48,659 bases of DNA from Planotetraspora kaengkrachanensis. Lineage in GTDB: Bacteria > Actinomycetota > Actinomycetes > Streptosporangiales > Streptosporangiaceae. The stretch lies in NCBI RefSeq assembly GCF_016862895.1, contig NZ_BONV01000058.1, forward strand, positions 1-48,659. Direction: 5' to 3'. The translations under genes were made by a program, and so were the position numbers. Shown here piece by piece: positions 11,566-45,617 of this stretch. Under the pieces are notes generated by a model, which worked only from the letters and a program-made list of their open reading frames with translations, was not told the DNA's origin and did no database searches. How positions within the stretch are numbered: position 1 is the first letter of the stretch; the number at the start of each line of letters is the position of its first letter.

Positions 11566-11643
11566 CCCCCTCCGCGCGCGACCCCTTCCGCGTGCGACCC
11601 CTTCCGCGCTCGACCCCTTCCGCGCTCGACCCCTTCCGCGTGA
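11564..11643 (+). repeat. 16-bp tandem repeat beginning at the glgB stop
   Basis: Five consecutive 16-bp copies of GACCCCTTCCGCGnnC start at 11564, 11580, 11596, 11612 and 11628. The first includes the last two bases of the glgB TGA, and the fifth runs directly into the first CGTGATCATGCAC unit of array A. The copies differ at one or two positions. Confidence 0.85.
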
Positions 11644-11993
11644 TCATGCACACCTTCGGGTGCGGGTACGGCGACCAGCCCCAACCCTCGCCGTGATCAT
11701 GCACACTTTCGGGCGCTTGCCGCCTGACCGGCGCAAACCCCGTGCGTGATCATGCACGGACTCGGCGATCGGTGGCCTGACGTGCGGCTTCGCCGTACGT
11801 GATCATGCAGGGCGGCACCAGATGCATGATCACGGAGCGCATAACGCCAGATGGGACGGGGCTCGGCCGAATCCGCGCATGATCACGAATCGCATAAGGC
11901 CAGGCAGGGCGGGATCCAGCCGAACCTGTGCATGATCACGCGGGTGATGTGCCCAGCTTGGGCCATTGATCCGCGAGTCTATGCATGATCACC
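11639..11993. repeat. array A: 4 direct + 4 inverted 53-bp units
   Basis: The TGATCA palindrome of the CGTGATCATGCAC core occurs at 11641, 11694, 11747 and 11800 in direct orientation, then at 11827, 11880, 11933 and 11986 inverted. Every step within an arm is exactly 53 bp, and the two arms are 27 bp apart at the centre. The array fills the gap between glgB and sppA. The last unit contributes to a hairpin (TCACCCCA 11989-11996, TGGGGTGA 12001-12008). Confidence 0.9.
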
Positions 11994-12053
11994 CCAAACA
12001 TGGGGTGAATCGGCCGGGCCGTGACGACACGACCGTCGCCTATGGTGACATTT

Positions 12054-13745
12054 ATGGACGCGACACAGGCCATCATGGAGACCGTCGACAGGCTTCGGCA
12101 ACGCCGTACCGCGGCACTCGTGCTGGAGCTCGATCTCACCGAGGGGCTGTCCGAGGGACCGCCCTCCGACCCGCTCGGAGCCCTGCTGTCCATGCGCAGG
12201 CCCCGGCTCACCGACGTGTTGGCGGGCCTGCGGCGCGCCCGCACCGACTCCCGGGTCAAGGGGCTGATCGTGAAGATCGGCGGCAACCCCATCGGCCTCG
12301 GCATGGTCCAGGAGCTGCGCACCGCCGTACTGAAGCTCCGGGCCGCGGGGAAGCGGACCGTCGCGTTCGCGGAGACGTTCGGCGAGTTCGGCGCCGGGAC
12401 CGTTCCTTATTACCTGGCCAGCGCGTTCGAGAAGGTCTACCTCCAGCCGTCCGGCGACGTCGGCCTCACCGGCATCACGCTCGAGCAGCGCTTCGTACGG
12501 GACGCGCTAGCCAAGGTGGGGGTGGAGTACCAGCTCGGCCAGCGTCATGAGTACAAGACCGCGGCCAACATGTTCACCCAGAACCGCATGACCGAGCCGC
12601 ACCGCGAGTCCACCGCCCGCATCGCCGAGTCGGTGACCGAGCAGATCACGGCGGGCATCGCCGAGGCACGCTCGCTCGAACCCCGGCGGGTGCGCGAGCT
12701 CATCGACCAGGGGCCGTTCCTGGGGCCGGAGGCGGTGGAGGCGGGCCTGGTCGACGCTCTCAAGTACCGCGACGAGGTGTACGCCGAGGCGGTGGAGGAC
12801 GGCACCCACCTGATGTACGTGTCGCGGTACGCCAAGTCGGCGCTGGCCAAGCGGCTCCCCCACCCCGGCGAGCCGGTGATCGCGCTGGTCCACGGCACCG
12901 GCGCCATCCGGCTCGGCCGCAGCGGCCGCTCTCCGCTCGGCGGCGGGGGCGCCATGGGCTCCGACACGATCTGCGCGGCGCTCCGCTCCGCCCGCAAGGA
13001 CGACAAGGTCAGGGCCATCGTGTTCCGCGTGGACAGCCCGGGCGGGTCGTACGTCGCCTCGGACGCGATCTGGCGCGAGGTCGTGCTGGCCCGCGAGGCC
13101 GGCAAGCCGGTGATCATCTCGATGGGCGACCTCGCCGCGTCCGGCGGGTACTTCGTCGCGATGGGCGCCGACGTCATCGTCGCGCAGCCGGGCACGCTGA
13201 CCGGCTCGATCGGCGTGTTCGGCGGCAAGCCGGTCGTCGGCGAGCTGCTGGGCAGGCTCGGCGTGGTCACCGAGGCGGTCTCCGAGGGCGCCAACGCCGG
13301 CATGTTCTCCCCCGTACGTGAGTTCTCCGACGACCAGTGGGCCAGGGTCAACAGCTGGCTGGACCGGATCTACGACGACTTCGTCGGCAAGGTGGCGCAG
13401 GGACGCGGCCTGACCAGGGAGCGGACGCACGAGCTTGCCAGGGGAAGGGTCTGGACGGGTGCCGACGCCCGGGAGGCGGGTCTGGTCGACGAGCTCGGCG
13501 GCGTGGAGGACGCGCTGAGCCTGGCACGCAAGAAGGCCGGGTTACCCAAGGACACCCAGGTCAGGACGTATCCGCGCATGCATCCGCTGGAGCGGCTCCG
13601 GCCGCCGGAGTCGAGCGAGGACAGGTCCGCCGCCCTCGCCAGGGTGCGTCTCGAGGCGTGGGGCCCGATGGCCAGGCTGGCCGGCGAGCTCGGCCTCCCG
13701 GCGTTCGGCCCGCTGATGCTCCCCGGGTGGTGGACGATCCGCTGA
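12054..13745 (+). CDS. sppA: signal peptide peptidase SppA, 67K type
   Basis: 563 aa from ATG 12054. Family S49 serine protease that degrades cleaved signal peptides. It has two tandem ClpP-like halves. The Ser/Lys dyad is seen as K168 in the N-terminal half (RHEYKTAANMF) and S363 in the C-terminal half (GDLAASGGYFVAM), as in the long 67K form. No strong N-terminal transmembrane segment is visible, which differs from E. coli SppA. The frame opens at GTG 12021 with further starts at 12042 and 12045. ATG 12054 has GGTGA 5-6 bases upstream. It stands alone after array A. Confidence 0.85.
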   Translation: MDATQAIMETVDRLRQRRTAALVLELDLTEGLSEGPPSDPLGALLSMRRPRLTDVLAGLRRARTDSRVKGLIVKIGGNPIGLGMVQELRTAVLKLRAAGKRTVAFAETFGEFGAGTVPYYLASAFEKVYLQPSGDVGLTGITLEQRFVRDALAKVGVEYQLGQRHEYKTAANMFTQNRMTEPHRESTARIAESVTEQITAGIAEARSLEPRRVRELIDQGPFLGPEAVEAGLVDALKYRDEVYAEAVEDGTHLMYVSRYAKSALAKRLPHPGEPVIALVHGTGAIRLGRSGRSPLGGGGAMGSDTICAALRSARKDDKVRAIVFRVDSPGGSYVASDAIWREVVLAREAGKPVIISMGDLAASGGYFVAMGADVIVAQPGTLTGSIGVFGGKPVVGELLGRLGVVTEAVSEGANAGMFSPVREFSDDQWARVNSWLDRIYDDFVGKVAQGRGLTRERTHELARGRVWTGADAREAGLVDELGGVEDALSLARKKAGLPKDTQVRTYPRMHPLERLRPPESSEDRSAALARVRLEAWGPMARLAGELGLPAFGPLMLPGWWTIR

Positions 13746-13761
13746 GCCGGCGTCGCGTGTC

Positions 13762-14292
13762 ATGAAGATCGTCACCGCTCACACCGCGGACCTGGACGCC
13801 GAGACGCTGGTCGAGGCGCGAACGCTCCTCGACGACGTGTTCGACGGCGGCCTGGACGACCACGACTGGGACCACTCACTGGGCGGCGTCCACGCCCTCG
13901 TCCGGGAGGGACCGGACCTGGTCGCCCACGGGTCGGTCGTCCAGCGGCGCCTGATCCACGACGGCCGGGCGCTCCGCGTGGGATACATCGAGGCCGTCGG
14001 CGTACGCGCCGACCTGCGCAGGAACGGGTACGGCGCCGCCGTCATGACCGCGCTGGAGCGAGTGGTGCGCGGCGCGTACGAGATGGGCGCCCTGAGCAGC
14101 GCCCACGAGGCCGTCGGCTTCTACGCCGCCCGCGGGTGGCGGCTCTGGCTGGGGCGGACGTGGGCGCTCACGCCTGACGGACTCCGGCGCACGGAGGAGG
14201 ACGACGACGGCGTCTACGTCCTGCCCGTAACGGTCTCGCCCGACCTGTCCGGGGATCTCACCTGCGACTGGCGGGACGGCGACGTCTGGTAG
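13762..14292 (+). CDS. aac(2'): aminoglycoside 2'-N-acetyltransferase, AAC(2')-I type
   Basis: 176 aa GNAT-fold protein. The alignment from memory to the chromosomal mycobacterial AAC(2')-I enzymes is strong over the full length: HTADLDAET near the start, LGGVHALV, VQRRLIHDGRALRVGY, RGAYEMGALSS, and the signature C-terminus CDWRDGDVW. These enzymes acetylate the 2'-amino group of gentamicin/tobramycin-class drugs with acetyl-CoA. It starts at ATG 13762, 17 bp after sppA. There are no mobile-element traces, so it looks like an intrinsic chromosomal gene. The physiological substrate may not be an antibiotic. Confidence 0.88.
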   Translation: MKIVTAHTADLDAETLVEARTLLDDVFDGGLDDHDWDHSLGGVHALVREGPDLVAHGSVVQRRLIHDGRALRVGYIEAVGVRADLRRNGYGAAVMTALERVVRGAYEMGALSSAHEAVGFYAARGWRLWLGRTWALTPDGLRRTEEDDDGVYVLPVTVSPDLSGDLTCDWRDGDVW

Positions 14293-14404
14293 CCCGGACC
14301 GGTTCCCCTCGCCAGGGTGAAATGCCGGCCGGGCTCGCGGACATGTGCCAGGTGTCAGCTTCCGTGAGGGACGCCGTGACCCCGGCGTGCGCCCAAGGAG
14401 AGAG

Positions 14405-14959
14405 ATGCCGCCCCCTGATGAGAAACGACGCCGTTTCGAGGCGATGTACGCGGCCAACCACGACCCCGTGCTCGGGTATGTGCTGCGCCGCACCGCCGAC
14501 GCCCACGACGCCGCCGACGTCCTCGCCGAGACGTTCCTGACCGCCTGGCGGCGGCTGGACGACGTGCCGCCGGACGACCAGACCAGGCCGTGGCTGTACG
14601 GCGTGGCCCGGCGCGTGCTCGCCAACCACCGCCGGGGCGAACGACGACGCCTCGCGCTCGGCGACCGGCTCCGGGCCGACCTCGCCGACAGGCCTGCCGG
14701 AGAGGTGCCCGCGGACCTGCGCCCGATCATGGAGGCGCTGGACGGCCTGCCCGAGCGCGACCGGGAACTCCTGACGCTGGTCGGCTGGGAGGACCTGGAC
14801 GCCGGGCAGATCGCCACCGTGCTCGGCTGCTCGCGCAACGCCGTACGGGTCCGGTTGCACCGCGCCCGCCGACGCTTCACCCGCGAGCTGGAACGTCGCG
14901 GTGCCCTGTTCGAAATGCCGGCGCCCCAGGTCGGGGTCACGGAGGGAGATCCCGCATGA
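14405..14959 (+). CDS. ECF-family RNA polymerase sigma factor
   Basis: 184 aa. Region 2 (about 10-80) includes DVLAETFLTAWRRLDD and the DNA-melting segment RPWLYGVARRVLANHRR. Region 4 (about 110-165) has the helix-turn-helix LDAGQIATVLGCSRNAVRVRLHRARRR. The start is ATG 14405 after AAGGAGAG. Its stop overlaps the next start (ATGA), so it is translationally coupled to a membrane protein that is probably its regulator. This is the usual layout of an ECF sigma/anti-sigma pair. The ECF group and target promoters cannot be named from the sequence. Confidence 0.9.
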   Translation: MPPPDEKRRRFEAMYAANHDPVLGYVLRRTADAHDAADVLAETFLTAWRRLDDVPPDDQTRPWLYGVARRVLANHRRGERRRLALGDRLRADLADRPAGEVPADLRPIMEALDGLPERDRELLTLVGWEDLDAGQIATVLGCSRNAVRVRLHRARRRFTRELERRGALFEMPAPQVGVTEGDPA

Positions 14960-15819
14960 ATCCCGAACTGCTGATCAAGAAGGCCGCCCCCGTGACCGAC
15001 GAGGAGGCCGCCGCAATGGTGCGCCCGCAGACCAGGGCCGATCTGGCCGATCGGATCATGGCAACGGCGCAGGACACCAGTGCGGCCGAGATCCCCCGGA
15101 AGGTGTCATCCGGACGCCGTCTGCTGCTCGGTGTCGCCGTGGTTGGCGTGACGGCCGCCGCGGCGGTCGTCGTGACGTCGTCCGCGACCCCCGGTCAGAA
15201 GGTCGGTCCCGTGCAGGTCGGGCCGCCGAGCGCCCAGGCCGCCGCCCTGTCGTTCAGCCGCGAGGGCGACTACCTGGTCGTGAAGGTGAAGGACCCGGTC
15301 GCCGACCCGGCCCGCTACCGGCGGGAGTTCGCGGCGAGGGGGCTGGACGTCGACCTCACCCTGGAGCCCTCCTCCGCGAACAGAGCCGGCTCGGTGCTCA
15401 TGATGGGGGGCGACGAAGAAAGCAACGACGTACGGATGATCACGGCGGAAGGGGCCTGCGGTCCGGAGACCTGCGGCGTCGGCATCAAGATTCCCCTGAC
15501 GTTCAAAGGTCATCTAAGTGTCGTCTTCGGCCGGGCAGCGCGACCGGGCGAGCAGTACAACACCGCCCCCGGAGACGTACCGGGCGAAGGCGTCGGGCTG
15601 AGCGACGTCCAGGGCAGGACCGTGGCGGACGTGCTCGCGGAGGCCGCCAGACGGCACATCACGAGGATCGAGTACCGCTACGAGGAGGACGGCTCGGACC
15701 AGCCGTACCCGAACGGCATCCCTGCCGCGGAGGTGCACGAGGACTGGTACGTCCGTGACGCGCTCGCGGGCAGCGAGGGTCAAGTGATCATCTTCGTCGG
15801 CCCCGAGCCACTGGGCTGA
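14956..15819 (+). CDS. single-pass membrane protein, probable sigma partner
   Basis: 287 aa. A cytosolic N-terminal region of about 50 residues precedes one hydrophobic segment (about 54-76, LLLGVAVVGVTAAAAVVVTS) and a large extracytoplasmic domain with two Cys in GACGPETCG. The ATG overlaps the sigma stop by ATGA, so co-expression is very likely. Its position and topology match membrane proteins that accompany ECF sigma factors, but no zinc anti-sigma motif (HxxxCxxC) is visible. Calling it an anti-sigma factor is therefore inference. Its 3' end is only 19 bp from the convergent flavin reductase. Confidence 0.6.
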   Translation: MNPELLIKKAAPVTDEEAAAMVRPQTRADLADRIMATAQDTSAAEIPRKVSSGRRLLLGVAVVGVTAAAAVVVTSSATPGQKVGPVQVGPPSAQAAALSFSREGDYLVVKVKDPVADPARYRREFAARGLDVDLTLEPSSANRAGSVLMMGGDEESNDVRMITAEGACGPETCGVGIKIPLTFKGHLSVVFGRAARPGEQYNTAPGDVPGEGVGLSDVQGRTVADVLAEAARRHITRIEYRYEEDGSDQPYPNGIPAAEVHEDWYVRDALAGSEGQVIIFVGPEPLG

Positions 15820-15838
15820 CCGGGAGCCCTTGGGAGCC

Positions 15839-16330: not shown

Positions 16331-16344
16331 GCTCCCCCCTTGCC

Positions 16345-16694
16345 CGTGATCATGCACAGGTTCGGAGGGACCCCCTCCCACCTGCGCAACCTCGCGGCGT
16401 GATCATGCACATGTTCGCAGAAGTCCCGCCCGGCCTGCACCTTTCCCATTCGTGATCATGCACAGGTTCTGCGGCGTACGGCCTGGCCTGCGATTTCAAC
16501 GTTCGTGATCATGCGCTTTCGAGTGCATGATCACGGGCGTCTTTTCCGCAGGTCAGCGGCCTTGCCCACGAATCCGCGCATGATCACGAATCGCATCGCC
16601 GCAGGCAGGGCCGCCGATTCACGAACCTGTGCATGATCACGAGCCGAGGTTGCGCAGGCAGAGCCGCACATCCGCGAACCTGTGCATGATCACA
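16345..16694. repeat. array B: 4 direct + 4 inverted 53-bp units
   Basis: The TGATCA of the CGTGATCATGCAC core lies at 16347, 16400, 16453 and 16506 (direct) and at 16528, 16581, 16634 and 16687 (inverted). All within-arm steps are exactly 53 bp, and the arms are 22 bp apart at the centre. The second and third inverted units from the centre share unit-specific sequence with the units in the same places of array A (CGTGATCATGCGCGGATTCG prefix; ATGCGATT end). The array fills the gap between the flavin reductase start and the ABC operon's 3' end. Confidence 0.9.
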
Positions 16695-16716
16695 CCAACA
16701 AAAAAACGCACGCGGG

Positions 16717-17631
16717 TCAGAGGAGGCCGTTCTGGGTCAGCCAGTCCTTGGCGACCACGGGCGGGTCGGCCTTGTCGACGGAGATCTGCTTCATCAGCGA
16801 CAGCAGGGTGTCCGTGGTGAGCTTGGCCGAGACCGCGTTGAGCGTCGAGGTGACCGTGTCGTCGACTCCGGCCTTGTAGACGAGGGGCGTGACGTTGTCG
16901 GAGCCGAACGCGTTCTTCGTGTCCTGCAGCGAGACCAGGTCGTTCAGCACGATCTTGGGGTCGGTCGTGAAGACGTTGCCCACCTGGATCGTGCCGCTCT
17001 TGATCGCGTCCGCGGTGGTGTCACCGGTCGGCTTCCACTCCTTGAACTCCATGCCGTAGACGTCCTTGAAGTTCTGCTCCTGCCGCTCCTTGAACTCCGG
17101 CGGCCCGCCGACGACGAAGTTCTTGGACACCTTGGCCAGGTCCTCGATCGTGGTGAGCTTGTCCTTGGCCGCCGTGTCCTTGGTGACCGTCAGCGAGTTG
17201 TTGTCCTGAGCCTCGGAGGGGTCGAGAACACCGAGCTCGGCCGGGAGCTTCGCCTGCAGTCCGGCGACGATCTCGTCCTTGGTCTTCGCGGTGCTCGTCT
17301 TGTCGACGAAGGCCAGCAACGAACCGATGTACTCGGGCACGACCGTCAGGCCGCCGCTCTTGACCTGGTCGTAGACGACCTCACGGGTGCCGATGTTGGG
17401 CTTCTCCTCGACGGTGACGCCCTTGGCCTGCAACGCCTGCGCGTAGATCGAGCCGAGCAGGATGCTCTCGGGGAAGTTGAACGAGCCGACGACGACCTTG
17501 GCCGACGTCCCGCCCGAACTCGCCGGCGCGTTCGACGGCGTGGCGGAGGTCAGCGGATCGGAACCTCCGCACGCGGATAGGGTCAGCGCCGCGGTCACGG
17601 CGACCACGGCGGCGGTGAGGATGCGTTTCAT
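16717..17631 (-). CDS. osmoprotectant ABC transporter substrate-binding lipoprotein
   Basis: 304 aa. The signal peptide ends in lipobox LSAC (Cys about 20), followed by a Ser/Pro/Thr-rich linker, so it is membrane-anchored outside the cell. The body matches the OpuAC-type glycine betaine/choline-binding family, opening with KVVVGSFNFPESILLGSIYAQAL and containing GLTVVPEYIGSLL. The start is ATG 17631 with AAGGGA upstream; GTG 17646 is an alternative. It is the last gene of the four-gene minus-strand operon. The exact ligand (glycine betaine, proline betaine, choline, carnitine) is not readable. Confidence 0.88.
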   Translation of the reverse strand: MKRILTAAVVAVTAALTLSACGGSDPLTSATPSNAPASSGGTSAKVVVGSFNFPESILLGSIYAQALQAKGVTVEEKPNIGTREVVYDQVKSGGLTVVPEYIGSLLAFVDKTSTAKTKDEIVAGLQAKLPAELGVLDPSEAQDNNSLTVTKDTAAKDKLTTIEDLAKVSKNFVVGGPPEFKERQEQNFKDVYGMEFKEWKPTGDTTADAIKSGTIQVGNVFTTDPKIVLNDLVSLQDTKNAFGSDNVTPLVYKAGVDDTVTSTLNAVSAKLTTDTLLSLMKQISVDKADPPVVAKDWLTQNGLL

Positions 17632-17667
17632 CAAAATTCCCTTCACAATCGGGAGGTAATAGGGAGA

Positions 17668-20387: not shown

Positions 20388-21695
20388 GTGTCCTCACCGC
20401 TCACCGGTCAGCGCTCACGGAGCGAGCTGATCGCCGAGCTCTACGAGCGTCACGCCGCCGGGCTGTTCGCGTACTGCCACGACCAGCTCGGCGAGACGAC
20501 GTCGGCGGGCGACGCCGTGGTCGCGGTCTTCACCGGCGTCCCGGCGGGTGAACCGCCCGCCCGTGCCGCCCTGTACGCCCTGGCTCGCCGCGAGATCTAC
20601 CGCAGGGATGTCAGCTATGCCCTCCCTTCCGTCGACTCCGTCGCCGACCCCGCCACCGCGCTGATCGAGCGCGTCTTCCGTGACATCCGGCCGCACCAGC
20701 GCGAGGTGCTGCTGTTGTCGGCGGTCTGCCGGCTGAGCAGCTCCGAGATCGCCGTCGTCCTCGACGTCGCCGTCGACACCGCGCAGGAGCTCACGTTCGG
20801 GGCGCAGCGGCGCTTCGCCCAGACCCTCGAGACCGCGACGACGGCCGCCCGCTCAGCGCCGTACGTCGTCGCCGGCGTGGCGGAGGTCTACAACGCGATC
20901 GGAGTCGCACCGGTCGAGGACATCCTCGCCCGCCTGCCGTGGCGCGGCCCATCCGCCGCGGTGCGCGGCCGCGTGCTGTCCGCGCTGCTCCTCGAAGATC
21001 CAGGCGTGACCACCGGTTCCCTCAAGCTGTCCGCCAAGAAGTTGTGGCCCACGACTCCCACCTGGCCGCTGCCGCTGAGCAACCCGGACCAGGCGACGGA
21101 CACCGTCCTGGTGCAGACCGACCCGGCCAAGGCGCCGCTGCCTCGCCGCAAGGCCAAGCACGAGGCCATGACCGAGCCCATGCCCAAGATGCGGGGATCG
21201 ATCCTCAACGCGCTCGGCGACGGCCGTCCGGGCCGGAGGCGGGCGATCCCGGCTGCGCCGACGGCCGCCGCCGTCTCCGCCCCGGTCGCGGCTCCGACCC
21301 CGGCCCCGGCCCCGGCTCCGGCGTCACCTTCGGTTTCGTCTTCGTCTTCGTCGGAGGTCGACGCGACCTTCGACGCCTTCCGCCCCGCCGAGCCGGATCC
21401 CGCGCCGCCGGCCGCGATCTCGGCTGCGCCGCCGGTCATGCCCAAGGTCGCCGCGGCCCAGCCGGCGCCGGTCGAGGCCACCCCGCCGATTCAGCAGGAG
21501 AGCGGTCCTGCGGCGGTCCTGGAGGCTGAGACGCCGAAGCAGCCGGCGAAGATCGAGGCCCGCCCGAAGAAGCGCAAGAAGGCCAAGTCGCGTGACCGCC
21601 ACTACGACTGGGTCTGGGAGCTCGTAGGCTTCCTGATCTGCCTGGCCATCGCCTTGATCGTGTTCTTCAGCGTCCCCACGATCGTCACCCCCTGA
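20388..21695 (+). CDS. sigma-factor-like protein with Pro/Ala linker and C-terminal membrane anchor
   Basis: 435 aa. Residues about 5-150 resemble sigma-70 regions 2 and 4: an ELYERHAAGLFAYCHDQL opening, then IRPHQREVLLLSAVCRLSSSEIAVVLDVAVDTA as a degenerate region 4. The middle is low complexity, rich in Pro, Ala and Ser. The last 30 residues follow a basic stretch (PKKRKKAKSRDRHYDW) and form one hydrophobic segment ending at the C-terminus. Topology predicts a cytosolic sigma-like domain tethered to the membrane. The start is GTG 20388, nine bases after AGAGGAG; GTG 20379 sits too close. No anti-sigma gene is adjacent. Whether it still binds RNA polymerase is unknown. Confidence 0.7.
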   Translation: MSSPLTGQRSRSELIAELYERHAAGLFAYCHDQLGETTSAGDAVVAVFTGVPAGEPPARAALYALARREIYRRDVSYALPSVDSVADPATALIERVFRDIRPHQREVLLLSAVCRLSSSEIAVVLDVAVDTAQELTFGAQRRFAQTLETATTAARSAPYVVAGVAEVYNAIGVAPVEDILARLPWRGPSAAVRGRVLSALLLEDPGVTTGSLKLSAKKLWPTTPTWPLPLSNPDQATDTVLVQTDPAKAPLPRRKAKHEAMTEPMPKMRGSILNALGDGRPGRRRAIPAAPTAAAVSAPVAAPTPAPAPAPASPSVSSSSSSEVDATFDAFRPAEPDPAPPAAISAAPPVMPKVAAAQPAPVEATPPIQQESGPAAVLEAETPKQPAKIEARPKKRKKAKSRDRHYDWVWELVGFLICLAIALIVFFSVPTIVTP

Positions 21696-21709: not shown

Positions 21710-21830
21710 CGTGATCATGCACGGGTTCGGCGACGTGCGCCCTGACCTGCCCAACCCCCTCGCGTGATCATGCACACTTTCGCGATCACGGCCTCTCACC
21801 TGCGGTGACGACGTTCGTGATCATGCGCGG
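21710..21830 (+). repeat. array C: three direct 53-bp units
   Basis: TGATCA cores at 21712, 21765 and 21818 are exactly 53 bp apart and all in direct orientation. They fill the convergent gap between the sigma-like gene and ltp2. The second unit has an additional internal GATCA 18 bp after the first. The last unit has the CGTGATCATGCGC variant core, as also seen at the inner end of the direct arm of array B. Confidence 0.88.
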
Positions 21831-23034: not shown

Positions 23035-23206
23035 CTGCATGATCACGAAACCGGTCGGTGCAGGTCAAAGACATTGATCGCGAAAGTGTGCATGATCACG
23101 GCCAGAGGGGTCGCAGCTCACCCGGCCTGATCACGAATCCGTGCATGATCACGCGCGGGGTGGGGGGAGGTCGGCGGGGGACTCTCCGAACCCGTGCATG
23201 ATCACG
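23035..23206 (-). repeat. array D: four inverted 53-bp units inside the sterol operon
   Basis: TGATCA cores at 23040, 23093, 23146 and 23199, exactly 53 bp apart, all inverted (reading with the operon). The 23199 unit lies within chsH1 coding sequence, the 23146 palindrome holds the chsH1 stop, and the 23040 unit merges into the ltp2 ribosome binding site. An extra TGATCA at 23128 belongs to a unit with an internal second copy. Confidence 0.88.
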
Positions 23207-33781: not shown

Positions 33782-33794
33782 GTGCATGATCACG
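33782..33794 (-). repeat. E: solitary copy of the 53-bp repeat core
   Basis: A single inverted GTGCATGATCACG core with its TGATCA at 33787. It is the only copy without neighbours at 53 bp and is also the only copy within the fucose operon. Confidence 0.8.
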
Positions 33795-33818
33795 AACTGC
33801 CTCGCTCCGGGTCAAGGG

Positions 33819-33894
33819 GGTCGTACGGGGTCACACGGGTAGTACGGGGTCACACGGGTCGTACAGGTTCACACGGGTCGTACGGGGTCACACG
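33819..33894 (-). repeat. 19-bp tandem repeat at the fucose dehydrogenase stop
   Basis: Four 19-bp copies (plus-strand GGTCGTACGGGGTCACACG) start at 33819, 33838, 33857 and 33876. The first copy on the coding strand contains the TGA stop of the aldo/keto reductase. A related sequence occurs at 46264-46350. Confidence 0.85.
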
Positions 33895-38107: not shown

Positions 38108-38118
38108 ACATCCGATGT
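38108..38118 (-). promoter_or_regulatory. GntR-operator core in the fucose operon promoter
   Basis: The minus strand reads ACATCGGATGT, identical over 11 bp to the centre of the palindrome at 30096-30122. It lies just upstream of the first fucose gene. The flanks differ, so it would be a weaker site. Confidence 0.55.
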
Positions 38119-38262
38119 TTTCTCAAGGAGAAGATTTCCGGACGGCCGACGCCGATGTCAAGTGCGAGGCGGCACACACCTCCGATGACCTGCGGCTGCC
38201 GACGCTTCATGTCACCCCGCGGCCACCCCGGCCACACCTTGACGTACGATCTGGAGCCGTAA

Positions 38263-38276
38263 TAGAACACGTTTCA
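38263..38276 (+). promoter_or_regulatory. KstR-type box upstream of the P450
   Basis: TAGAACACGTTTCA fully matches TnnAACnnGTTnnA and lies 74 bp before the P450 start, linking that gene to the sterol regulon. Confidence 0.78.
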
Positions 38277-38349
38277 GTAAGAGGTTCGCAGGCGGCTGGT
38301 ATAAACGATCTTCCAGTCCCCGGCCTCACCCTCGACACTAGGTGGTCCC

Positions 38350-39552: not shown

Positions 39553-39573
39553 CCCCCCGGGCCCTCCCCTTGG

Positions 39574-39806
39574 CGTGATCATGTAAGTGCAGGTCCCCCC
39601 TTGGCGTGATCATGTAAGTGCAGGTCCCCCCTGGTGTGATCATGCACAAGTTCGCGGAGACACTGCCCGACCTGCGCCACCCCTTGGTGTGATCATGCAC
39701 AGGTTCGGCCGCATGCCGTACGACCTGGCCTTTCACCGTCCGTGATCATGCATAGATTCGGAGAGACCCCCTCCCACCAGCGCCAACGCCTGTCGTGATC
39801 ATGCAG
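39574..39806 (+). repeat. array F: six direct units, two contracted
   Basis: TGATCA cores lie at 39576, 39607, 39637, 39690, 39743 and 39796. The last three steps are exactly 53 bp, while the first two are 31 and 30 bp. The contracted units read CGTGATCATGTAAGTGCAGG and then the CCCCCTTGG end, losing the middle of the unit. The array fills the gap between the P450 and the AbiEi/DUF559-like gene. Confidence 0.9.
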
Positions 39807-39896
39807 GCGGCCGGGCTTGTCCACAGCCACGCCTGATATCCACAGCCGGGCGGACCTGCCAACGGCTGGGCCTGCGAAGTCCCATGCTGTGCGGTC

Positions 39897-40865
39897 ATGG
39901 ATCTCATCACGACGGCGGCCGCCAGGGCGCGCGGAATCGACAAGGACGAGCTCACCAGGCTCGTCGACACCGGCGAGATTCATCGGCTCGCACTCGGGGC
40001 CTATTACGCCGGCGACCATCCGCATGCCCTGGCCGTACGAGCGCAGATCATCGCCGCCGTCAGCGGGCCGACGGCGATCATCTGCCGCCGCACGGCCGCG
40101 TGGTTGTGGGGCCTCGACGTGCTTCCGCCGGGGAAGACGAGCCACGACTGGCCGGTGGAGCTCCTCGTCGCCGCAGGAGAAAGGACGCGACCTCGGCGGC
40201 CCGGCTGCCGCGGCCACGAGGCCGAGATCACTTCCGCGGACATCACGCTCCTCGGCGGTGTGGCGATCACCACTCAAGAACGTACGGCTCTCGACTGTGC
40301 GCGATTCCTGCCGCGCCTTGAGGCCGTCGCGGCACTCGACCAGTTCCTCCGGCGGCGCGTCGAGATCGAGAGCCTGCAGACCCGGGCCCTCGCGCTCGCC
40401 GGCCGGCGCAACGCGAAGAGGCTCCGAGAGGTCCTGCAACTGGGCGACGCGGGCGCGCAGGCCCCCAGCGAGAGCTGGACGCGTGTGCTGATCGTCGATG
40501 CCGGCCTGCCGCGACCCGAGACGCAGATTCACGTCATCCTGCCGTCGGGCGCGGAGGTGTTCGTGGACATGGGGTACCCGAACCAACTGGTCGGGGTCGA
40601 GTACGACGGGGAGAAATACCACAGCAGCGCCGAGGACCTGGCGCACGACGCGTGGCGACGTGCGCAGCTTCGGGAGTGCGGCTGGGAGCTCGTCATCGTT
40701 CGCAAGTCAGACGTTCTCGGACGGCCCGCCGACTATCTCGAGGACTTGACCGGGAAACTCCTCTCCAGAGGATGGCGGCCGTCCACCGAGCAGATGACGT
40801 TCGTCCTCACGCGACTGCGCATGCTGCGCAACCGTGAGGCGCGATTTCGCCTCTATGCCGCGTGA
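39897..40865 (+). CDS. AbiEi-type N-terminal / DUF559-like C-terminal protein
   Basis: 322 aa. The N-terminal part (ITTAAARARGIDKDELTRLVDTGEIHRLALGAYYAG) is the winged-helix found in AbiEi-type antitoxin-like proteins. The C-terminal 110 residues resemble DUF559/very-short-patch-repair-like nucleases of the PD-(D/E)XK group: EVFVDMGYPNQLVGVEYDGEKYH then ECGWELVIVRKSDVL. Such proteins are common in actinobacteria and their role is unsettled. It has no toxin partner here. It stands alone between arrays F (direct) and G (inverted). ATG 39897 has no strong ribosome binding site. Confidence 0.7.
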   Translation: MDLITTAAARARGIDKDELTRLVDTGEIHRLALGAYYAGDHPHALAVRAQIIAAVSGPTAIICRRTAAWLWGLDVLPPGKTSHDWPVELLVAAGERTRPRRPGCRGHEAEITSADITLLGGVAITTQERTALDCARFLPRLEAVAALDQFLRRRVEIESLQTRALALAGRRNAKRLREVLQLGDAGAQAPSESWTRVLIVDAGLPRPETQIHVILPSGAEVFVDMGYPNQLVGVEYDGEKYHSSAEDLAHDAWRRAQLRECGWELVIVRKSDVLGRPADYLEDLTGKLLSRGWRPSTEQMTFVLTRLRMLRNREARFRLYAA

Positions 40866-40903
40866 CGCCTTAACCCTCTACCGTGCGCCATGTCCGACAG
40901 TGC

Positions 40904-41128
40904 GTGCATGATCACGACAGAGGTTTCCCCAGGTGGCGAGGCACGCTCCCGAATCCGTGCATGATCACGAACGAGGAAAGACCAGGTCGTACGGCACGCG
41001 GCCGAGCCTGTGCATGATCACGCCAGGGGGGTGCCCACGTCAGCCCGCCTCCCCGCGAACCCGTGCATGATCACGCCAAGCGTCGGCCCACGTCGTACGG
41101 CATGCGGCCGAACCTGTGCATGATCACG
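40904..41128 (-). repeat. array G: five inverted 53-bp units
   Basis: TGATCA cores at 40909, 40962, 41015, 41068 and 41121 are exactly 53 bp apart, all inverted. The 41121 palindrome contains the stop codon of gmd. Units at 41015 and 41121 are near-copies of the array F unit at 39690, in the opposite orientation. Confidence 0.9.
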
Positions 41129-42149
41129 GCCAGGAGGAGTCGTGATCTGGGTCGTGGCCGTCCGCGAGCAGACGCAGATCGGCCTCGACCATCATCGCGA
41201 CGAGTTCCTCAAACGACACGGTCGGCTCCCAGCCGAGCTGGGTCCTGGCCTTCTTCGGATCGGCGCACAGCAGGTCGACCTCCGCCGGCCGGTGCAGGTT
41301 CTGGTCGCACACGACGTGCTGCTCCCAGTCCAGCCCGGCGGCCGTGAACGCGGCCTCCACCAGTTCCCGTACGGACCTCGTCCGCCCGGTGCCGATCACG
41401 TAGTCCTCGGGGTCCCCCGCGCCCAGCATGAGGTGCATGGCCCGGACGTAATCCCCCGCGTATCCCCAGTCGCGCCGCGCCTCCAGGTTGCCCAGGCGCA
41501 GCTCGGTGGCGAGGCCGAGCTTGATCCGCGCCACTCCGAGGGTCACCTTTCTGGTGACGAACTCGGCGCCGCGGCGGGGCGACTCGTGATTGAAGAGGAT
41601 GCCCGACACGGCGAACATCCCGTACGACTCGCGGTAGTTCTGAGTCAGGAAGTGCCCGTACGCCTTGGCGACGCCGTACGGGGAGCGGGGGTGGAAGGGG
41701 GTGCTCTCGGTCTGCGGCGTCTCCCTGACCTGCCCGAACATTTCAGACGAAGAAGCCTGATAAAAGCGGATCTGTCCGGCGGCCGAGCCGCGCGACGCCG
41801 TTATCCCCGAACACACCCGGATGGCCTCGAGCATGCGGAGCACTCCCATGCCGGTCACCTCGGCCGTGAGCTCAGCCTGCTCCCAGGACATCGGGACGAA
41901 CGAGATCGCGCCCAGGTTGTAGACCTCGTCGGGTCGCACCTTCTCGACGGCCGAGATCAGCGAACCCTGGTCGAGCAGGTCGCCCCGGACGAGTTGCACA
42001 TCCTGGAGGAGCTTCCGTACGCGCGACACGCGGGGGTTGGCCTGGCCGCGGACGAGGCCCCACACGTCGTAACCCTCACTGAGCAGGTGCTCGGCGAGAT
42101 ATGAGCCGTCCTGACCGGTGATGCCGGTTACAAGCGCGCGCTTGGCCAA
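41124..42149 (-). CDS. gmd: GDP-mannose 4,6-dehydratase
   Basis: 341 aa extended SDR that converts GDP-D-mannose to GDP-4-keto-6-deoxymannose. It has ALVTGITGQDGSYLAEHLL at the N-terminus, Ser/Glu in YQASSSEMFGQ, the YGVAK motif in SPYGVAKAYGHF, and NLEARRDWGYAGDYVRAMHLML. TTG 42149 follows GAGGAGGACC and fits the family N-terminus. The TGA stop lies inside the palindrome of a 53-bp unit. It is divergent from a glycosyltransferase operon, suggesting 6-deoxyhexose supply for a surface glycan. Confidence 0.92.
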   Translation of the reverse strand: MAKRALVTGITGQDGSYLAEHLLSEGYDVWGLVRGQANPRVSRVRKLLQDVQLVRGDLLDQGSLISAVEKVRPDEVYNLGAISFVPMSWEQAELTAEVTGMGVLRMLEAIRVCSGITASRGSAAGQIRFYQASSSEMFGQVRETPQTESTPFHPRSPYGVAKAYGHFLTQNYRESYGMFAVSGILFNHESPRRGAEFVTRKVTLGVARIKLGLATELRLGNLEARRDWGYAGDYVRAMHLMLGAGDPEDYVIGTGRTRSVRELVEAAFTAAGLDWEQHVVCDQNLHRPAEVDLLCADPKKARTQLGWEPTVSFEELVAMMVEADLRLLADGHDPDHDSSWP

Positions 42150-42247
42150 CGGTCCTCCTCGCTGTGCCCGACCAACCCGATGAGGGCTATAAGAGGCGAA
42201 TGTACCGCCCTGCCCGCCTCAGGATGCCATCGTGATCGACCATTAGA

Positions 42248-42261
42248 TAGAACGTGTTACA
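42248..42261 (+). promoter_or_regulatory. KstR-type box between gmd and the glycosyltransferase
   Basis: TAGAACGTGTTACA fully matches TnnAACnnGTTnnA and lies 99 bp before gmd and 148 bp before the glycosyltransferase start. The match is sequence-only; neither neighbour is a known sterol gene. Confidence 0.6.
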
Positions 42262-42408
42262 CCGAATGCCATTCGGGTAAGCTAACTTCGCAGTTCCGGC
42301 ATGGTGCAGGCAACCCTAGGAACAATTCCACCCGAGCTGTCCTATCTAAGGTCAAATGGTAGGGTTCGGTGCCAGCCCCTTGAGGGCACAGCGGGAAAGA
42401 GGTGCCCT

Positions 42409-43653
42409 TTGGCCGAACGGCTGCGAGTCGCGCTGCTGTCCTATCGCAGCAAGCCCACCTGCGGCGGTCAGGGGGTGTATCTCCGCCACATCAGCCGTGA
42501 ACTGGTCGCCCTCGGTCACCACGTCGAGGTCTTCTCCGGCCAGCCGTACCCCGAGCTGGATGAGGGCGTGATCCTCAACAAGGTCCCGAGCCTCGACCTC
42601 TACAACGACGACGACCCGTTCCGGACGCCGAAGCTGCGCGAGTACCGCGACTGGATCGACGTCCTGGAGGTCGCCACCATGTGGACGGCCGGCTTCCCCG
42701 AGCCGCTGACCTTCAGCCTTCGCGCGCGCCGAGAGCTCGAGAAGCGCCAGGGCGACTTCGACGTCGTGCAGGACAACCAGACGCTCGGGTACGGCGTGCT
42801 CGGGATCAAGAAGCTCTTCCCCGTCGTCGGCACGATCCACCACCCGATCAGCGTCGACCGCCGGATCGAGCTCAAGGCGGCGAAGGGCTGGAAGAAGCTC
42901 TCCATGCGCCGCTGGTACGGGTTCGTGCGCATGCAGAGCATCGTCGCCCCACGGCTGAGCCCGATCCTGACCGTCAGCGAGTCGTCGCTGGCCGACATCC
43001 ACCGCGACTTCGGCGTCCCCGAGGACAACATGCGGCTGATCCCCCTCGGGGTCGACACCCGCTTCTTCCACCCCAGGCCGGAGCTGCCCAAGCGGCCGGG
43101 GTCGATCGTGGCCGTGGCGAGCGCCGACTCGCCGATGAAGGGCGTCGCGACGCTGCTGCGGGCGACCGCGAAGCTCGCCACCGAGCGCGACGTGCACCTC
43201 ACCGTGGTGAGCAAGCCGACGCCCGGCGGGCCCACGGAGAAACTCATCGCGGAGCTCTCGCTGAACGAGCACGTCACGTTCGTGCACGGCATCTCGGACG
43301 AGGCGCTCGCGGAGCTGATCGCCACGTCGGAGGTGTCGGTCGTCCCCTCGCTGTACGAGGGCTTCTCGCTGCCCGCCGTCGAGCACATGGCCTCCGGAAC
43401 CCCGCTGGTCGCCTCCCGGACGGGCGCCCTTCCCGAGGTCGTCGGCGACGCCGCGATCCAGGTCGAGCCGGGTGACCCCGAGGAGCTGGCCGCGGTCCTG
43501 CTCCGCCTGCTGGACTCCCCGGAGGAGCGCGAGGCGGTGGGCCGCAAGGGCTACGAGCGGGTCATGGAACGCTACGCCTGGCCCGTCGTCGCCCGGCGCA
43601 CGGTCGAGGCCTACCGCGAGGCCATCGCGGCGCGTACGGCTCACACCAGTTGA
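42409..43653 (+). CDS. GT4-family glycosyltransferase
   Basis: 414 aa GT-B fold retaining glycosyltransferase. The N-terminus RVALLSYRSKPTCGGQGVYLRHISRELVALGHHVEVF is typical, and the C-terminal donor domain has the EX7E-type YEGFSLPAVEHMASGTPLVASRTGALPEVV. TTG 42409 follows AAAGAGG at six bases; the open frame up to 42301 lacks a site. It leads a plus-strand run with a methyltransferase and a toroid protein. Donor and acceptor are not known; GDP-sugar made through Gmd is a plausible source. Confidence 0.85.
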   Translation: MAERLRVALLSYRSKPTCGGQGVYLRHISRELVALGHHVEVFSGQPYPELDEGVILNKVPSLDLYNDDDPFRTPKLREYRDWIDVLEVATMWTAGFPEPLTFSLRARRELEKRQGDFDVVQDNQTLGYGVLGIKKLFPVVGTIHHPISVDRRIELKAAKGWKKLSMRRWYGFVRMQSIVAPRLSPILTVSESSLADIHRDFGVPEDNMRLIPLGVDTRFFHPRPELPKRPGSIVAVASADSPMKGVATLLRATAKLATERDVHLTVVSKPTPGGPTEKLIAELSLNEHVTFVHGISDEALAELIATSEVSVVPSLYEGFSLPAVEHMASGTPLVASRTGALPEVVGDAAIQVEPGDPEELAAVLLRLLDSPEEREAVGRKGYERVMERYAWPVVARRTVEAYREAIAARTAHTS

Positions 43654-43734
43654 CCTTCGCCCTTCCCCAGGCCGCCGACCACCGGATCGTCCGTGCGGCG
43701 GCCGACAGACATTGCGATACGAAAGGTGACGCGA

Positions 43735-44448
43735 GTGCTGACCGTCGACTTCGACCGTCTGCCCGTCGGACCGGGTGACCGCGTTCTCGACCTCGGCGCC
43801 GGCGCGGGCCGGCACGCGTTCGAGGTGCTGCGCAGAGGCGCCGACGTGGTCGCCTTCGACATGGACGCCGCCGAACTCGAAGGCGTGGCCGCGATGTTCG
43901 CGGCGATGGACAAGGAAGGGCAGATCCCCCCGGGGGCCACCGGCGAGACGGTCGTCGGCGACGCGCTCGGCATGCCCTTCCCCGACGCGTCGTTCGACCG
44001 CGTCATCGCCGCCGAGATCCTCGAGCACATCCCCGACGACATGGCCGCGATGCGGGAGATCGTCCGGGTGCTCAAGCCGGGCGGCCAGGCCGCCATCACG
44101 GTCCCGAACTTCATCCCCGAGCGCATCTGCTGGGCCCTCTCCGAGGACTACCACACGGCGCCTGGCGGACATATCCGGATTTATACGTTGGCCGAGCTTC
44201 AGGCCAAGCTGAAGGCCTCCGGCCTGGAGGTCGGGCCCCACCATCACGCCCACGGGCTGCATTCGCCGTACTGGTGGATCAAATGCGCGGTCGGCGTGAA
44301 CAACGACGGCCACCCGCTGGCCAAGGCCTACCACGAGCTCCTGGTGTGGGACATCATGAAGCGCCCCGCCGCCACCCGGATCGCGGAAGCCCTGCTCAAC
44401 CCTCTGATCGGGAAGAGTGTGGTGGTCTACGTCCGGAAGCCCGCATGA
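43735..44448 (+). CDS. class I SAM-dependent methyltransferase
   Basis: 237 aa. SAM-binding motif I is VLDLGAGAGRHAFEVL, followed by acidic AFDMDAAELEG and motif FDRVIAAEILEHIPDDMAAMREIVRVLKPGG, as in UbiE/Methyltransf_11 proteins. GTG 43735 is preferred (GAAAGG 8 bases upstream) over GTG 43726. Its stop overlaps the next start (ATGA). It probably modifies a glycan or its lipid carrier together with the adjacent glycosyltransferase; the substrate is unknown. Confidence 0.82.
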   Translation: MLTVDFDRLPVGPGDRVLDLGAGAGRHAFEVLRRGADVVAFDMDAAELEGVAAMFAAMDKEGQIPPGATGETVVGDALGMPFPDASFDRVIAAEILEHIPDDMAAMREIVRVLKPGGQAAITVPNFIPERICWALSEDYHTAPGGHIRIYTLAELQAKLKASGLEVGPHHHAHGLHSPYWWIKCAVGVNNDGHPLAKAYHELLVWDIMKRPAATRIAEALLNPLIGKSVVVYVRKPA

Positions 44449-45506
44449 CGGCGGCGCCGTCCGTACCCGGAGTCATCACCGCCGAGCAGGTGGTCCAGAC
44501 GGCGCGGAGCATCGCCGCGATCCAGGACGCCACCGGTGGCATCCCCTGGCCTGAGGGCCACGTCGACGCCTGGAACCACATCGAGTGCCTGATGGCCCTC
44601 ACCGTGGCCGGGCTGCGCGACGAGGCGCGCCGCGGCTTCGACTGGCTCGTACGGCACCAGCGTCCGGACGGCTCCTGGCCGATGAAGCTCGTCGGTGACG
44701 AGGCGGTCGAGGCCGGCGGGGAGTCCAATCACGCGGCCTACGTCGCCGTGGGCGTCTGGCACGATCTGCTCGTTACCGGCGACATGGACTTCGCCCGGTC
44801 GATGTGGCCCGTGGTCGCCAGGGCCCTCGACTTCGTCGTGGACCTGCAGACCACCCGGGGCGAGATCGTGTGGGAGCGGAACGTCGCCGGCGAGCCCGCC
44901 GCCTACGCCCTGCTCACCGGCTCCTCATCCGTTCACCAGGGGCTCCGCTGCGGTGTGCTGCTCGCCGAACGGCTGGGTGACCCGCAACCCGACTGGGAGC
45001 TCGCGGCCGACCGCCTCGGGCACGCGCTCACGGCGCATCCGGAGGCGTTCGCGGACAAGAGCCGCTTCTCGATGGACTGGTACTACCCGATCCTGGGCGG
45101 CGCCGTCCGGGGCGCCCAGGCGGCGCAGCGGCTCGACCTGGAGTGGGACACGTTCGTCGTCCCCGGGCTCGGCGCGCGCTGCGTGTCCGACCAGCCGTGG
45201 GTGACCGGCGCCGAGTCGTGCGAGCTGGTCATGACCCTCGACGCGCTCGGAGACGACGAGCGGGCGCTGGCGGTGTTCGCGGACATGCAGCACCTGCGGC
45301 ACGAGGACGGGTCCTACTGGACCGGCTGGCAGTTCGTGAACGGCAAGCACTTCCCGCACGAGCGGTCGGGCTACACGGCGGCCGCGGTGATCCTCGCGGC
45401 CGACGCCCTCTCGCGGACCACTCCCGGCTCCGGAGTCTTCCGCGACGCGGGAGGCCAGCAGGTGCGGATCACGGGCGAGTGCGGATGCGAGCGCGCCCAC
45501 GCCTGA
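44445..45506 (+). CDS. alpha/alpha-toroid protein (prenyltransferase/cyclase-like fold)
   Basis: 353 aa. Repeated helical pairs with W/G-rich motifs (IPWPEGHVDAWNHIECLMAL, FDWLVRHQRPDGSWPMKL, EDGSYWTGWQ) resemble the prenyltransferase/squalene-cyclase or glycoside-hydrolase-like alpha/alpha-barrel superfamily. No DxDD cyclase motif is evident, so a terpene role is doubtful; a glycan-related role fits its neighbours. ATG 44445 overlaps the methyltransferase stop. Its own TGA is the first half of a TGATCA belonging to array H. Confidence 0.7.
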   Translation: MTAAPSVPGVITAEQVVQTARSIAAIQDATGGIPWPEGHVDAWNHIECLMALTVAGLRDEARRGFDWLVRHQRPDGSWPMKLVGDEAVEAGGESNHAAYVAVGVWHDLLVTGDMDFARSMWPVVARALDFVVDLQTTRGEIVWERNVAGEPAAYALLTGSSSVHQGLRCGVLLAERLGDPQPDWELAADRLGHALTAHPEAFADKSRFSMDWYYPILGGAVRGAQAAQRLDLEWDTFVVPGLGARCVSDQPWVTGAESCELVMTLDALGDDERALAVFADMQHLRHEDGSYWTGWQFVNGKHFPHERSGYTAAAVILAADALSRTTPGSGVFRDAGGQQVRITGECGCERAHA

Positions 45507-45617
45507 TCACGTACGGTGGTGCCGCAGGTCACCAGACGTGCGCGCGATCCCGCGCATGATCACGTACGGCGGCGCCGCAGGTCATCGGCGCCGCACGCGA
45601 ATCCGTGCATGATCACG
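45504..45617 (-). repeat. array H: three inverted units in a convergent gap
   Basis: TGATCA at 45504, 45557 and 45610, exactly 53 bp apart. The first palindrome gives the TGA of the plus-strand toroid gene, and the last gives the TGA of the minus-strand methyltransferase, so the array is the whole intergenic region. The 45504 copy is degenerate on its outer side. Confidence 0.88.

What the first reader, a model, noticed from the sequence alone, without database searches (positions are those of the whole stretch)
11639..45617. A 38-copy intergenic repeat family with an exact 53-bp period
The core CGTGATCATGCAC (nearly invariant) begins units that continue with roughly AGGTTCGG and a second conserved block near position 36 (GACCTGCGC). 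I count eight clusters with 8, 8, 3, 4, 1, 6, 5 and 3 copies. Within clusters the cores are exactly 53 bp apart, except for two contracted steps. Almost every copy is intergenic, and the operon interiors of the glucan and osmoprotectant genes have none. I do not recognise the family. Mycobacterial MIRUs offer a loose analogy (unit length, gene-junction position), but sequence and symmetry differ.
Basis: seen in the sequence. Interest (0 to 1): 0.92.

Follow-up and report, generated by a model that had tools for sequence, protein, structure and literature searches.

The report
Nuclease-linked repeat arrays behind genes
Hundreds of short DNA repeat arrays sit just behind the ends of genes in this bacterium, and one pair of arrays encloses a gene for a likely DNA-cutting protein whose tested relatives are nearly all enclosed by repeats of their own, which points to an undescribed kind of repeat-spreading or repeat-keeping system.

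Summary
In detail: 37 of the 38 copies are found at <=2 mismatches (1.7 expected), and the genome, a Planotetraspora, has 505 exact 13-mers (control 0). Arms of head-to-tail units start about 15 bp behind stop codons, often as two facing arms; 2 of 75 clusters lie between divergent genes. Between two species 1 of 440 core positions changed, against 21-52% at free spacer positions; spacer length rarely changes. A short tail beside the core differs as a species dialect. Other actinobacterial families carry the same core with other tails. The arms at 39574-41128 enclose a gene for an AbiEi-like domain joined to a Vsr-like nuclease; a homologue in another family is enclosed the same way. Of 11 relatives tested, 10 have matching repeats on both sides, each with its own sequence; 0 of 323 control genes do. 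One of five Planotetraspora genomes lost the gene and has 3.8- to 6.1-fold fewer array pairs. Best reading: a nuclease-repeat pair that works like REP/RAYT with a different enzyme; it is not a REP. Binding, cutting and copying are inferred. A terminator role is the main rival or side effect.

The parts
11639..11810 (+). Array A, + arm (4 cores, 53 bp apart)
   Evidence: unit consensus
11822..11993 (-). Array A, facing - arm (4 cores)
16345..16516 (+). Array B, + arm (4 cores)
   Evidence: orthologous arrays in P. silvatica, P. mira, P. phitsanulokensis
16523..16694 (-). Array B, facing - arm (4 cores), first core 23 bp behind the stop of the OpuAC gene 16717-17631(-)
21710..21828 (+). Array C (3 cores), 15 bp behind the stop of gene 20388-21695(+)
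23035..23206 (-). Array D (4 cores); one core left in P. phitsanulokensis
33782..33794 (-). Single core E
39574..39806 (+). Array F (6 cores; first steps 31 and 30 bp), left arm enclosing the nuclease gene
39897..40865 (+). Gene for a 322-aa protein: AbiEi-like N-terminal part (residues 4-174) plus Vsr-like nuclease domain PF18741 (224-287); candidate partner of the arrays
40904..41128 (-). Array G (5 cores), right facing arm enclosing the nuclease gene; outermost core overlaps the stop codon of gene 41124-42149(-)
45552..45617 (-). Array H (2 cores at <=2 mismatches); outermost core overlaps the stop codon of gene 45613-46254(-)

Best explanation
The arrays are the genomic site family of a nuclease-repeat pair. 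A protein with an AbiEi-like DNA-binding part and a Vsr-like nuclease part, encoded between two facing arms, recognises its own repeat (conserved core plus species-specific tail). It probably nicks or cuts there, so that repair from other copies multiplies the repeat and keeps core and tail uniform. Copies survive where they do no harm, directly behind stop codons, where they may also replace hairpin terminators. Shown: the genetic linkage, the dispersal, the frozen core and near-fixed spacing, the species dialects, and fewer array pairs in the one species that lost the gene. Inferred: binding, cutting, copying and cause. It works like REP/RAYT but uses another enzyme and non-palindromic tandem units.
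For: Window gene 39897-40865 lies between facing arms F and G; its orthologues in P. mira, P. silvatica and P. thailandica do too (one event). In G535, another family, an array locus fetched for its arrays encloses a homologue (36% identity, E 3e-41). In G388 the only PF18741 hit lies, by coordinates, between a + array (C2:101001-101113) and a - array (C2:102121-102176). In G447 one of four hits lies about 0.7 kb from an array. Of 11 relatives, 10 have matching repeats left and right (scores 56-170), against 0 of 141, 0 of 173 and 0 of 9 control genes at 56, the lowest of the ten. Five such genes in one Tsukamurella genome have five different repeats. Six of these families were searched and have 41, 12, 20, 11, 7 and 6 places, flanking copies included. 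Of 15 Tsukamurella copies read, 14 lie within 13 bp of an annotated stop or overlap it by at most 8 bp, one is 31 bp away; 10 convergent, 5 tandem, 0 divergent. P. phitsanulokensis has 90 bp left at the gene's place, no other short PF18741 frame, and 92 exact 53-bp pairs against 354-558 in four sisters. Core 1 of 440 changed. Position 12 is G in 26 of 26 thailandica units, C in 90 of 96 window-species units. E192 and D224 are kept in 13 of 13 proteins, E235 in 12 of 13.
Against: No binding or cutting is shown. PF18741 also occurs in genomes without these arrays, so the gene is not sufficient. The Nonomuraea relative L313 has no matching flanks. Loss in P. phitsanulokensis is one event, and decay of its cores is only suggestive: 10 of 17 near-cores exact against 71-89% in four others. 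The near-strict 53-bp spacing is not explained by simple copying. Arrays also enclose other genes, e.g. a MobA-like gene in L294. The control threshold was set after seeing the scores.
Confidence: 0.5

Rival explanations
1. The arrays are maintained host elements: binding sites of a DNA-binding protein behind stop codons that act as roadblock-type transcription terminators or insulators, replacing hairpin terminators.
For: First core a median 14-15 bp behind the co-oriented stop; 2 of 75 clusters divergent. A strong stem within 75 nt of the stop is found at 9% of 33 array ends, against 44% of 152 convergent and 26% of 282 tandem ends without core; in G059 5% of 20 against 28% of 43 and 21% of 98 (ends with some other core nearby, 13 and 11, are a separate group at 31% and 0%). 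At the OpuAC gene 0 of 5 orthologues with an array and 21 of 35 without have a fold z <= -2. Core frozen and spacing kept: 404 substitutions but 3 of 45 spacers changed length; arrayless intergenic DNA has 629 indels for 3999 substitutions. No missing core inside arrays.
Against: Single arms between tandem genes are nearly as often antisense as sense (17 to 11). Patchy: 7 of 394 genomes of the class, and G344 of the same genus as G388 has none. Spacing varies in other families. By the genome-wide z-score test array ends do not differ from others (0.21 against 0.23 and 0.22 below -2).
Confidence: 0.25
2. AbiE-like defence or autoregulation: the flanking repeats are the operator of an AbiEi-type autoregulated nuclease, and dispersed copies titrate the protein or mark self DNA.
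For: AbiEi-like N-terminal part (E 1.6e-16). In the window and G535 the upstream arm is co-oriented with the gene; coordinates suggest the same in G388 and G447.
Against: Does not explain why many copies sit behind stop codons, or the facing arm behind the gene; no AbiEii toxin partner was looked for.
Confidence: 0.12
3. Ordinary REP/BIME elements mobilised by a RAYT transposase.
For: Same placement: in two species most REPs between convergent genes lie <20 bp from 3' ends (PMC3733652, passages).
Against: Y1_Tnp PF01797 is absent from 13 of the 14 array-bearing genomes searched. The unit has no GTAG/CGTC tag and no pairing within the unit above shuffles.
Confidence: 0.03
4. RNA-level element: Rho-type rut region, mRNA hairpin or small-RNA sponge in 3' UTRs.
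For: Behind stop codons; closely facing inner cores can pair.
Against: No C over G bias at free positions (C/(C+G) 0.48-0.52), no intra-unit pairing above shuffles, spacing kept to about 1 bp, antisense arms common. Units in other families do look C-rich.
Confidence: 0.05
5. Binding sites of a housekeeping regulator such as ArgR, or DNA uptake signals.
For: The exact 13-mer lies in a box listed for a fragment that S. coelicolor ArgR shifted (PMC5839063 Table 1, section read). Exact window cores score 2.9-15.9 on a matrix made from those boxes, overlapping the best sites upstream of argC in five genomes (13.6-18.8).
Against: The argC sites of the two Planotetraspora (18.8, 16.3) look different, and the left half CGTGA of the core is invariant and not ARG-like. 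Against uptake signals: isolated exact cores in coding DNA number 1 in 0.90 Mb (window species), 0 in 0.37 Mb (P. mira), 3 in 0.33 Mb (G059).
Confidence: 0.03

Closest known systems
REP/REPIN/BIME with RAYT
   Same: Many short intergenic repeats just behind 3' ends, clusters with inverted partners, an enzyme gene flanked by its own repeats, uneven distribution (PMC3733652 passages)
   Different: No Y1 transposase in 13 of 14 array genomes, no GTAG/CGTC tag, unit not palindromic, tandem arrays of near-fixed period, frozen core; partner gene is AbiEi-like plus Vsr-like nuclease; Actinobacteria are not named in that paper's main text. The repeats of the relatives L314, L315, L317, L318 and L320 are inverted pairs and so look more REP-like than the window's
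MIRU (mycobacterial interspersed repetitive units)
   Same: Tandem units of about 50 bp at gene junctions (recalled)
   Different: Two facing arms, frozen 11-bp core with fast-changing spacer, linked nuclease gene; no MIRU sequence was compared (MIRU features recalled)
AbiE (type IV toxin-antitoxin) AbiEi
   Same: N-terminal part matches AbiEi profiles
   Different: Fused to a nuclease domain, linked to dispersed repeats
Homing endonuclease genes
   Same: Nuclease gene embedded in what is proposed to be its own target
   Different: Hundreds of dispersed sites behind stop codons; no LAGLIDADG or HNH match among its Pfam hits

Membership tests
REP/BIME (RAYT-associated) | Palindromic stem-loop unit | tested here: not met
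   Tail/second-block pairing z -3.45 to 0.15 against shuffled units in four genomes
REP/BIME (RAYT-associated) | GTAG or CGTC tag at one end | tested here: not met
   Unit consensus starts CGTGATCATGC
REP/BIME (RAYT-associated) | RAYT (Y1_Tnp) gene in the genome | tested here: not met
   PF01797 absent from 13 of 14 array genomes; only G077 has matches
REP/BIME (RAYT-associated) | Located near 3' ends, rarely between divergent genes | tested here: met
   2 of 75 clusters divergent; median 14-15 bp behind co-oriented stops
MIRU | MIRU consensus sequence | not tested
   No MIRU sequence was compared
CRISPR array | Unique spacers without shared blocks, cas genes | tested here: inconclusive
   Spacers share TTCG and GACCTG blocks; cas genes not searched
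DNA uptake sequences | Many single copies, also in coding DNA | tested here: not met
   Isolated exact cores in coding DNA: 1, 0 and 3 in 0.90, 0.37 and 0.33 Mb
ArgR ARG boxes | Match to the ArgR matrix as good as argC sites | tested here: inconclusive
   Cores 2.9-15.9, argC sites of five genomes 13.6-18.8; ranges overlap
Described Rfam RNA | Match at the gathering score | tested here: not met
   0 matches in the window
AbiEi + Vsr-like nuclease with private repeats (proposed here) | Gene enclosed by matching repeats with its own sequence | tested here: met
   10 of 11 genes against 0 of 323 controls
AbiEi + Vsr-like nuclease with private repeats (proposed here) | Repeat copies dispersed behind stop codons | tested here: met
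   6 of 6 families searched have copies away from the gene; 14 of 15 read in Tsukamurella are within 13 bp of or slightly overlap a stop
AbiEi + Vsr-like nuclease with private repeats (proposed here) | Protein binds and cuts its repeat | not testable with these tools
   Needs biochemistry

The most novel reading that the evidence does not exclude
A general class of genome-shaping modules in Actinobacteria: each AbiEi-Vsr-like (DUF559-type) nuclease gene owns a private family of intergenic repeats, spreads or keeps it by cutting and repair directly behind stop codons, and drives species-wide changes of repeat dialect; several pairs coexist in one genome, and the repeats double as terminators. 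This would be a REP/RAYT counterpart that evolved from a toxin-antitoxin/restriction-type protein.
Probability: 0.45. Interest if true: 0.92.

Novelty: categorically new. Interest (0 to 1): 0.85.

Why it matters
If true, DUF559-type genes, several of them annotated only as hypothetical or DUF559 in the records seen, gain a role, and the origin of unexplained intergenic repeats in this phylum becomes testable: each nuclease predicts its repeat from its own flanks, and each repeat predicts its nuclease. It would be a second enzyme route, beside RAYT, by which short repeats populate bacterial genomes. The pairing of paralogue and repeat sequence gives a natural data set on DNA specificity.

Tried and rejected
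Helical phasing (53, 42, 31, 21 bp as multiples of 10.5): some steps fit, but 35-37, 45, 68-69 and 80 bp do not, and other families vary freely. Inconclusive; not used as evidence.

RNA hairpin within the unit failed against shuffled units, and C-rich bias is absent in Planotetraspora and G059. ArgR: only a half-box resemblance with overlapping scores. Uptake signals: cores rarely occur singly in coding DNA. RAYT. Mobile records: no core pair in viral contigs and no match of array B in phages or plasmids. Polarity relative to transcription is weak, 17 to 11. The genome-wide fold z-score showed no difference between array ends and others; the explicit stem search did. Global alignment of array regions gave messy gaps, so spacing was tested by core-to-core distance. 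Structure of the nuclease from its single sequence: mean pLDDT 38.5, not used. Enclosure is not exclusive to nuclease genes: L294 encloses a MobA-like gene. PF18741 occurs in arrayless genomes too.

Rows dropped: intergenic pairs above 45% divergence or with fewer than 30 aligned columns, and cores whose 25-bp flanks aligned below 55%; units not exactly 53 bp, cores with more than one mismatch, or spacer matches below 25 of 42; arms with fewer than two cores. One search pools the window species and P. mira, whose C1 contigs are orthologous, so its counts are not fully independent. One search also found 41 sites with two mismatches near arrays (6.5 expected), not separated further. Of the 10 places, nine (the best of each record) were examined. 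Of the 32 places, 15 of the 17 listed rows (best place per record) were read; the two left out are the nuclease genes' own flanks. The first eight read had been rows without a feature under the match; the other seven were added afterwards to remove that bias. The repeats of L316 and L319 were not searched for further copies.
Full report
OBSERVATION. One search finds 39 matches to CGTGATCATGCAC at <=2 mismatches in the window (1.72 expected, 0 of 100 shuffles as many). Units are exactly 53 bp apart except two short steps at 39574-39635. The genome (G000, 8.77 Mb) holds 259 + 246 exact 13-mers, with 0 for the reversed control. Contig lengths and record titles identify the relatives as Planotetraspora silvatica (G022), P. 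mira (G125), P. phitsanulokensis (G104) and P. thailandica (G077). The window species itself is not named by any search; G000 is of the same genus.

ANATOMY. The unit consensus from 96 units is CGTGATCATGC + ACaGgTTCG + free positions + GACCTGcG + aC.C + free positions. Each arm ends with a core. Many clusters are two arms facing each other. In 1.41 Mb of two Planotetraspora genomes and 0.40 Mb of G059 (another genus), 75 clusters with arms of two or more cores were placed against my own gene calls: 27 convergent, 46 tandem, 2 divergent, although divergent regions hold 30% and 21% of the intergenic length. In 41 of 56 and 33 of 49 arms the outer core follows a co-oriented stop codon, at a median of 14 and 15 bp; in 13 of these 74 arms the distance is -5, that is, the TGA inside the core is the called stop codon. 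Eight of 233 and 7 of 134 array cores fall in called genes. Single arms between tandem genes are sense 17 times and antisense 11 times, so orientation is not strongly fixed.

EVOLUTION. Orthologous arrays in five species differ in unit number, and in P. phitsanulokensis three loci (A, C, D) have one core left. Between the window species and P. mira, 1 of 440 aligned core positions differs, while free spacer positions (21-31 and 42-52 of the unit, about 40 unit pairs) differ by 21-52%. Third codon positions differ by 15.5% in 225 genes. Of 45 orthologous spacers with 404 substitutions, 42 keep their length, whereas arrayless intergenic DNA shows 629 indels for 3999 substitutions. No intact array has a missing inner core. 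The tail next to the core changes as a dialect: position 12 is C in 90 of 96 window-species units and G in 26 of 26 thailandica units; position 14 is G in 72 of 96 and A in 25 of 26; position 19 is G in 91 of 96 and C in 46 of 47 in G059. In 22 orthologous unit pairs with P. thailandica, position 12 differs in 100% and position 14 in 86%.

DISTRIBUTION. Of 297 genomes of the family, 9 hold exact 53-bp pairs: the five Planotetraspora in the sample, G059, and a few pairs in three species of one further genus; control 0. G051 has a 41-bp unit with core CGTGATC(T/A)TGC. Of 394 genomes of the class, 7 have CGTGATCWTGC pairs, among them members of three other families; control 0. In 12 loci read from these families the same core carries other tails (AATCCCGCCACCC, ACGCCAGCGC, ACGTTCGCCCC, AGCCGCTCGG and others), often starting right behind an open reading frame and with facing arms. 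The distribution is patchy: G344, same genus as G388, has none. No core pair was found in viral contigs, and array B has no match in the phage or plasmid collections.

TERMINATION. A strong stem within 75 nt of the stop occurs at 9% of 33 array ends, against 44% of 152 convergent and 26% of 282 tandem ends without a core; in G059 at 5% of 20 against 28% of 43 and 21% of 98; ends with another core nearby form a separate group of 13 (31%) and 11 (0%). A different measure, the MFE z-score of 60 nt, showed no difference (21% of 33 below -2, against 23% and 22%). At the OpuAC gene, 0 of 5 orthologues with an array and 21 of 35 without have z <= -2; P. thailandica is one of the 21, but its contig ends about 140 bp behind the stop. 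Pairing within units is not above shuffles and there is no C over G bias, so an RNA-level role is unlikely.

THE NUCLEASE. Window gene 39897-40865, between facing arms F and G, encodes 322 aa: an AbiEi-like part (PADLOC AbiEi E 1.6e-16, residues 4-174) and a Vsr-like nuclease domain, PF18741 (E 1.3e-10). Orthologues in P. mira (89%), P. silvatica (89%) and P. thailandica (79%) sit between facing arms too. P. phitsanulokensis has 90 bp left at this place, and its only PF18741 hit is in a 1517-residue frame elsewhere; it has 92 exact 53-bp pairs against 354-558 in its four sisters. L302 of G535 had been fetched because it holds arrays; the gene enclosed by its two arms is a homologue (E 3e-41), although its PF18741 score is weak (E 0.0018). 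PF18741 was found in 26 of 30 genomes searched, arrayless ones included, so presence of the family alone says little.

GENERALITY. Nine further homologues came from a tblastn of the plasmid collection (the Tsukamurella and Arthrobacter records look like chromosome pieces, which is my inference). Comparing 330 bp left and right of each gene, 10 of 11 (window, L302 and nine others) have mutual repeats above all 60 shuffles, best scores 56-170; L313 (Nonomuraea) has none. None of 141 genes from other genera, 173 genes of the window species' contig C1 and 9 neighbouring genes reaches 56; the highest is 42. The threshold is the lowest score of the ten, so it was set afterwards, but the two ranges do not touch. 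Each of the ten has its own sequence; five are in one Tsukamurella genome. The six families searched have 41, 12, 20, 11, 7 and 6 places in the collection, flanking copies included. Of the Tsukamurella copies I read 15 of the 17 listed rows: 14 lie within 13 bp of an annotated stop or overlap one by at most 8 bp, and one is 31 bp from a stop; 10 lie between convergent and 5 between tandem genes, none between divergent ones. Thirteen proteins align with E192 and D224 invariant and E235 in 12 of 13. A profile of them matches PDB 3hrl, 'Endonuclease-Like Protein', at E 2.4e-4. That these residues form a PD-(D/E)XK-type active site is recalled, not shown.

INTERPRETATION. The closest working analogy is REP/RAYT: repeats behind 3' ends, inverted partners, and an enzyme gene flanked by its repeats (PMC3733652, passages seen). 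Membership fails on three tested features: no palindromic unit, no GTAG/CGTC tag, no Y1 transposase in 13 of 14 array genomes. I propose a nuclease-repeat pair in which the AbiEi-like part recognises core plus tail and the nuclease drives repair-based multiplication and homogenisation. The linkage is well supported. Which way it acts (mobiliser, terminator factor, or autoregulated defence nuclease with decoy sites) is open. The strict spacing in Planotetraspora suggests that bound proteins touch or are phased along the DNA there, a point the mobiliser model alone does not explain.

PRINT. Full-text searches for the motif strings and for related repeat terms listed no paper that describes this family; I saw the listings, section 8 of PMC5839063 and passages of PMC3733652. 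'Categorically new' therefore rests on the failed membership tests and on recall, not on a literature search for the link.

Noticed in passing
window 11566-11638: Short tandem repeat (cgaccccttccgcg-like) between the GlgB stop and array A, resembling leader plus start of core.
   Followed up: no
window 33800-33887: Short tandem repeat (gtacggggtcacacggg-like) next to single core E; not seen in the orthologous segments of P. silvatica and P. mira.
   Followed up: no
G327 contig C9:47884-48247 (L305 563-969): A 22-bp version of the repeat in 19 nearly identical copies right behind an open reading frame.
   Followed up: partly
L312 (upstream of argC in G535): A facing pair of core+tail units forms a long hairpin, a terminator-like form of the same element (seen in the print-out).
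   Followed up: no
L275 (G297, another family), behind the GlgB gene: CGTGATCTTGCAGAAATTC inverted repeat, a likely further relative with T in place of A in the core.
   Followed up: no
PMC5839063 Table 1, SCO5864 box: The exact 13-mer lies in a box listed for a fragment shifted by Streptomyces coelicolor ArgR.
   Followed up: yes
L315 (Tsukamurella): A DUF559 gene with its repeats sits between the phosphoribosylaminoimidazolesuccinocarboxamide synthase gene and purB.
   Followed up: no
window 39574-39635: The two contracted steps (31 and 30 bp) carry a different tail (AAGTGCAGGTCCCCCCTTGG) at the stop-proximal end of array F.
   Followed up: no
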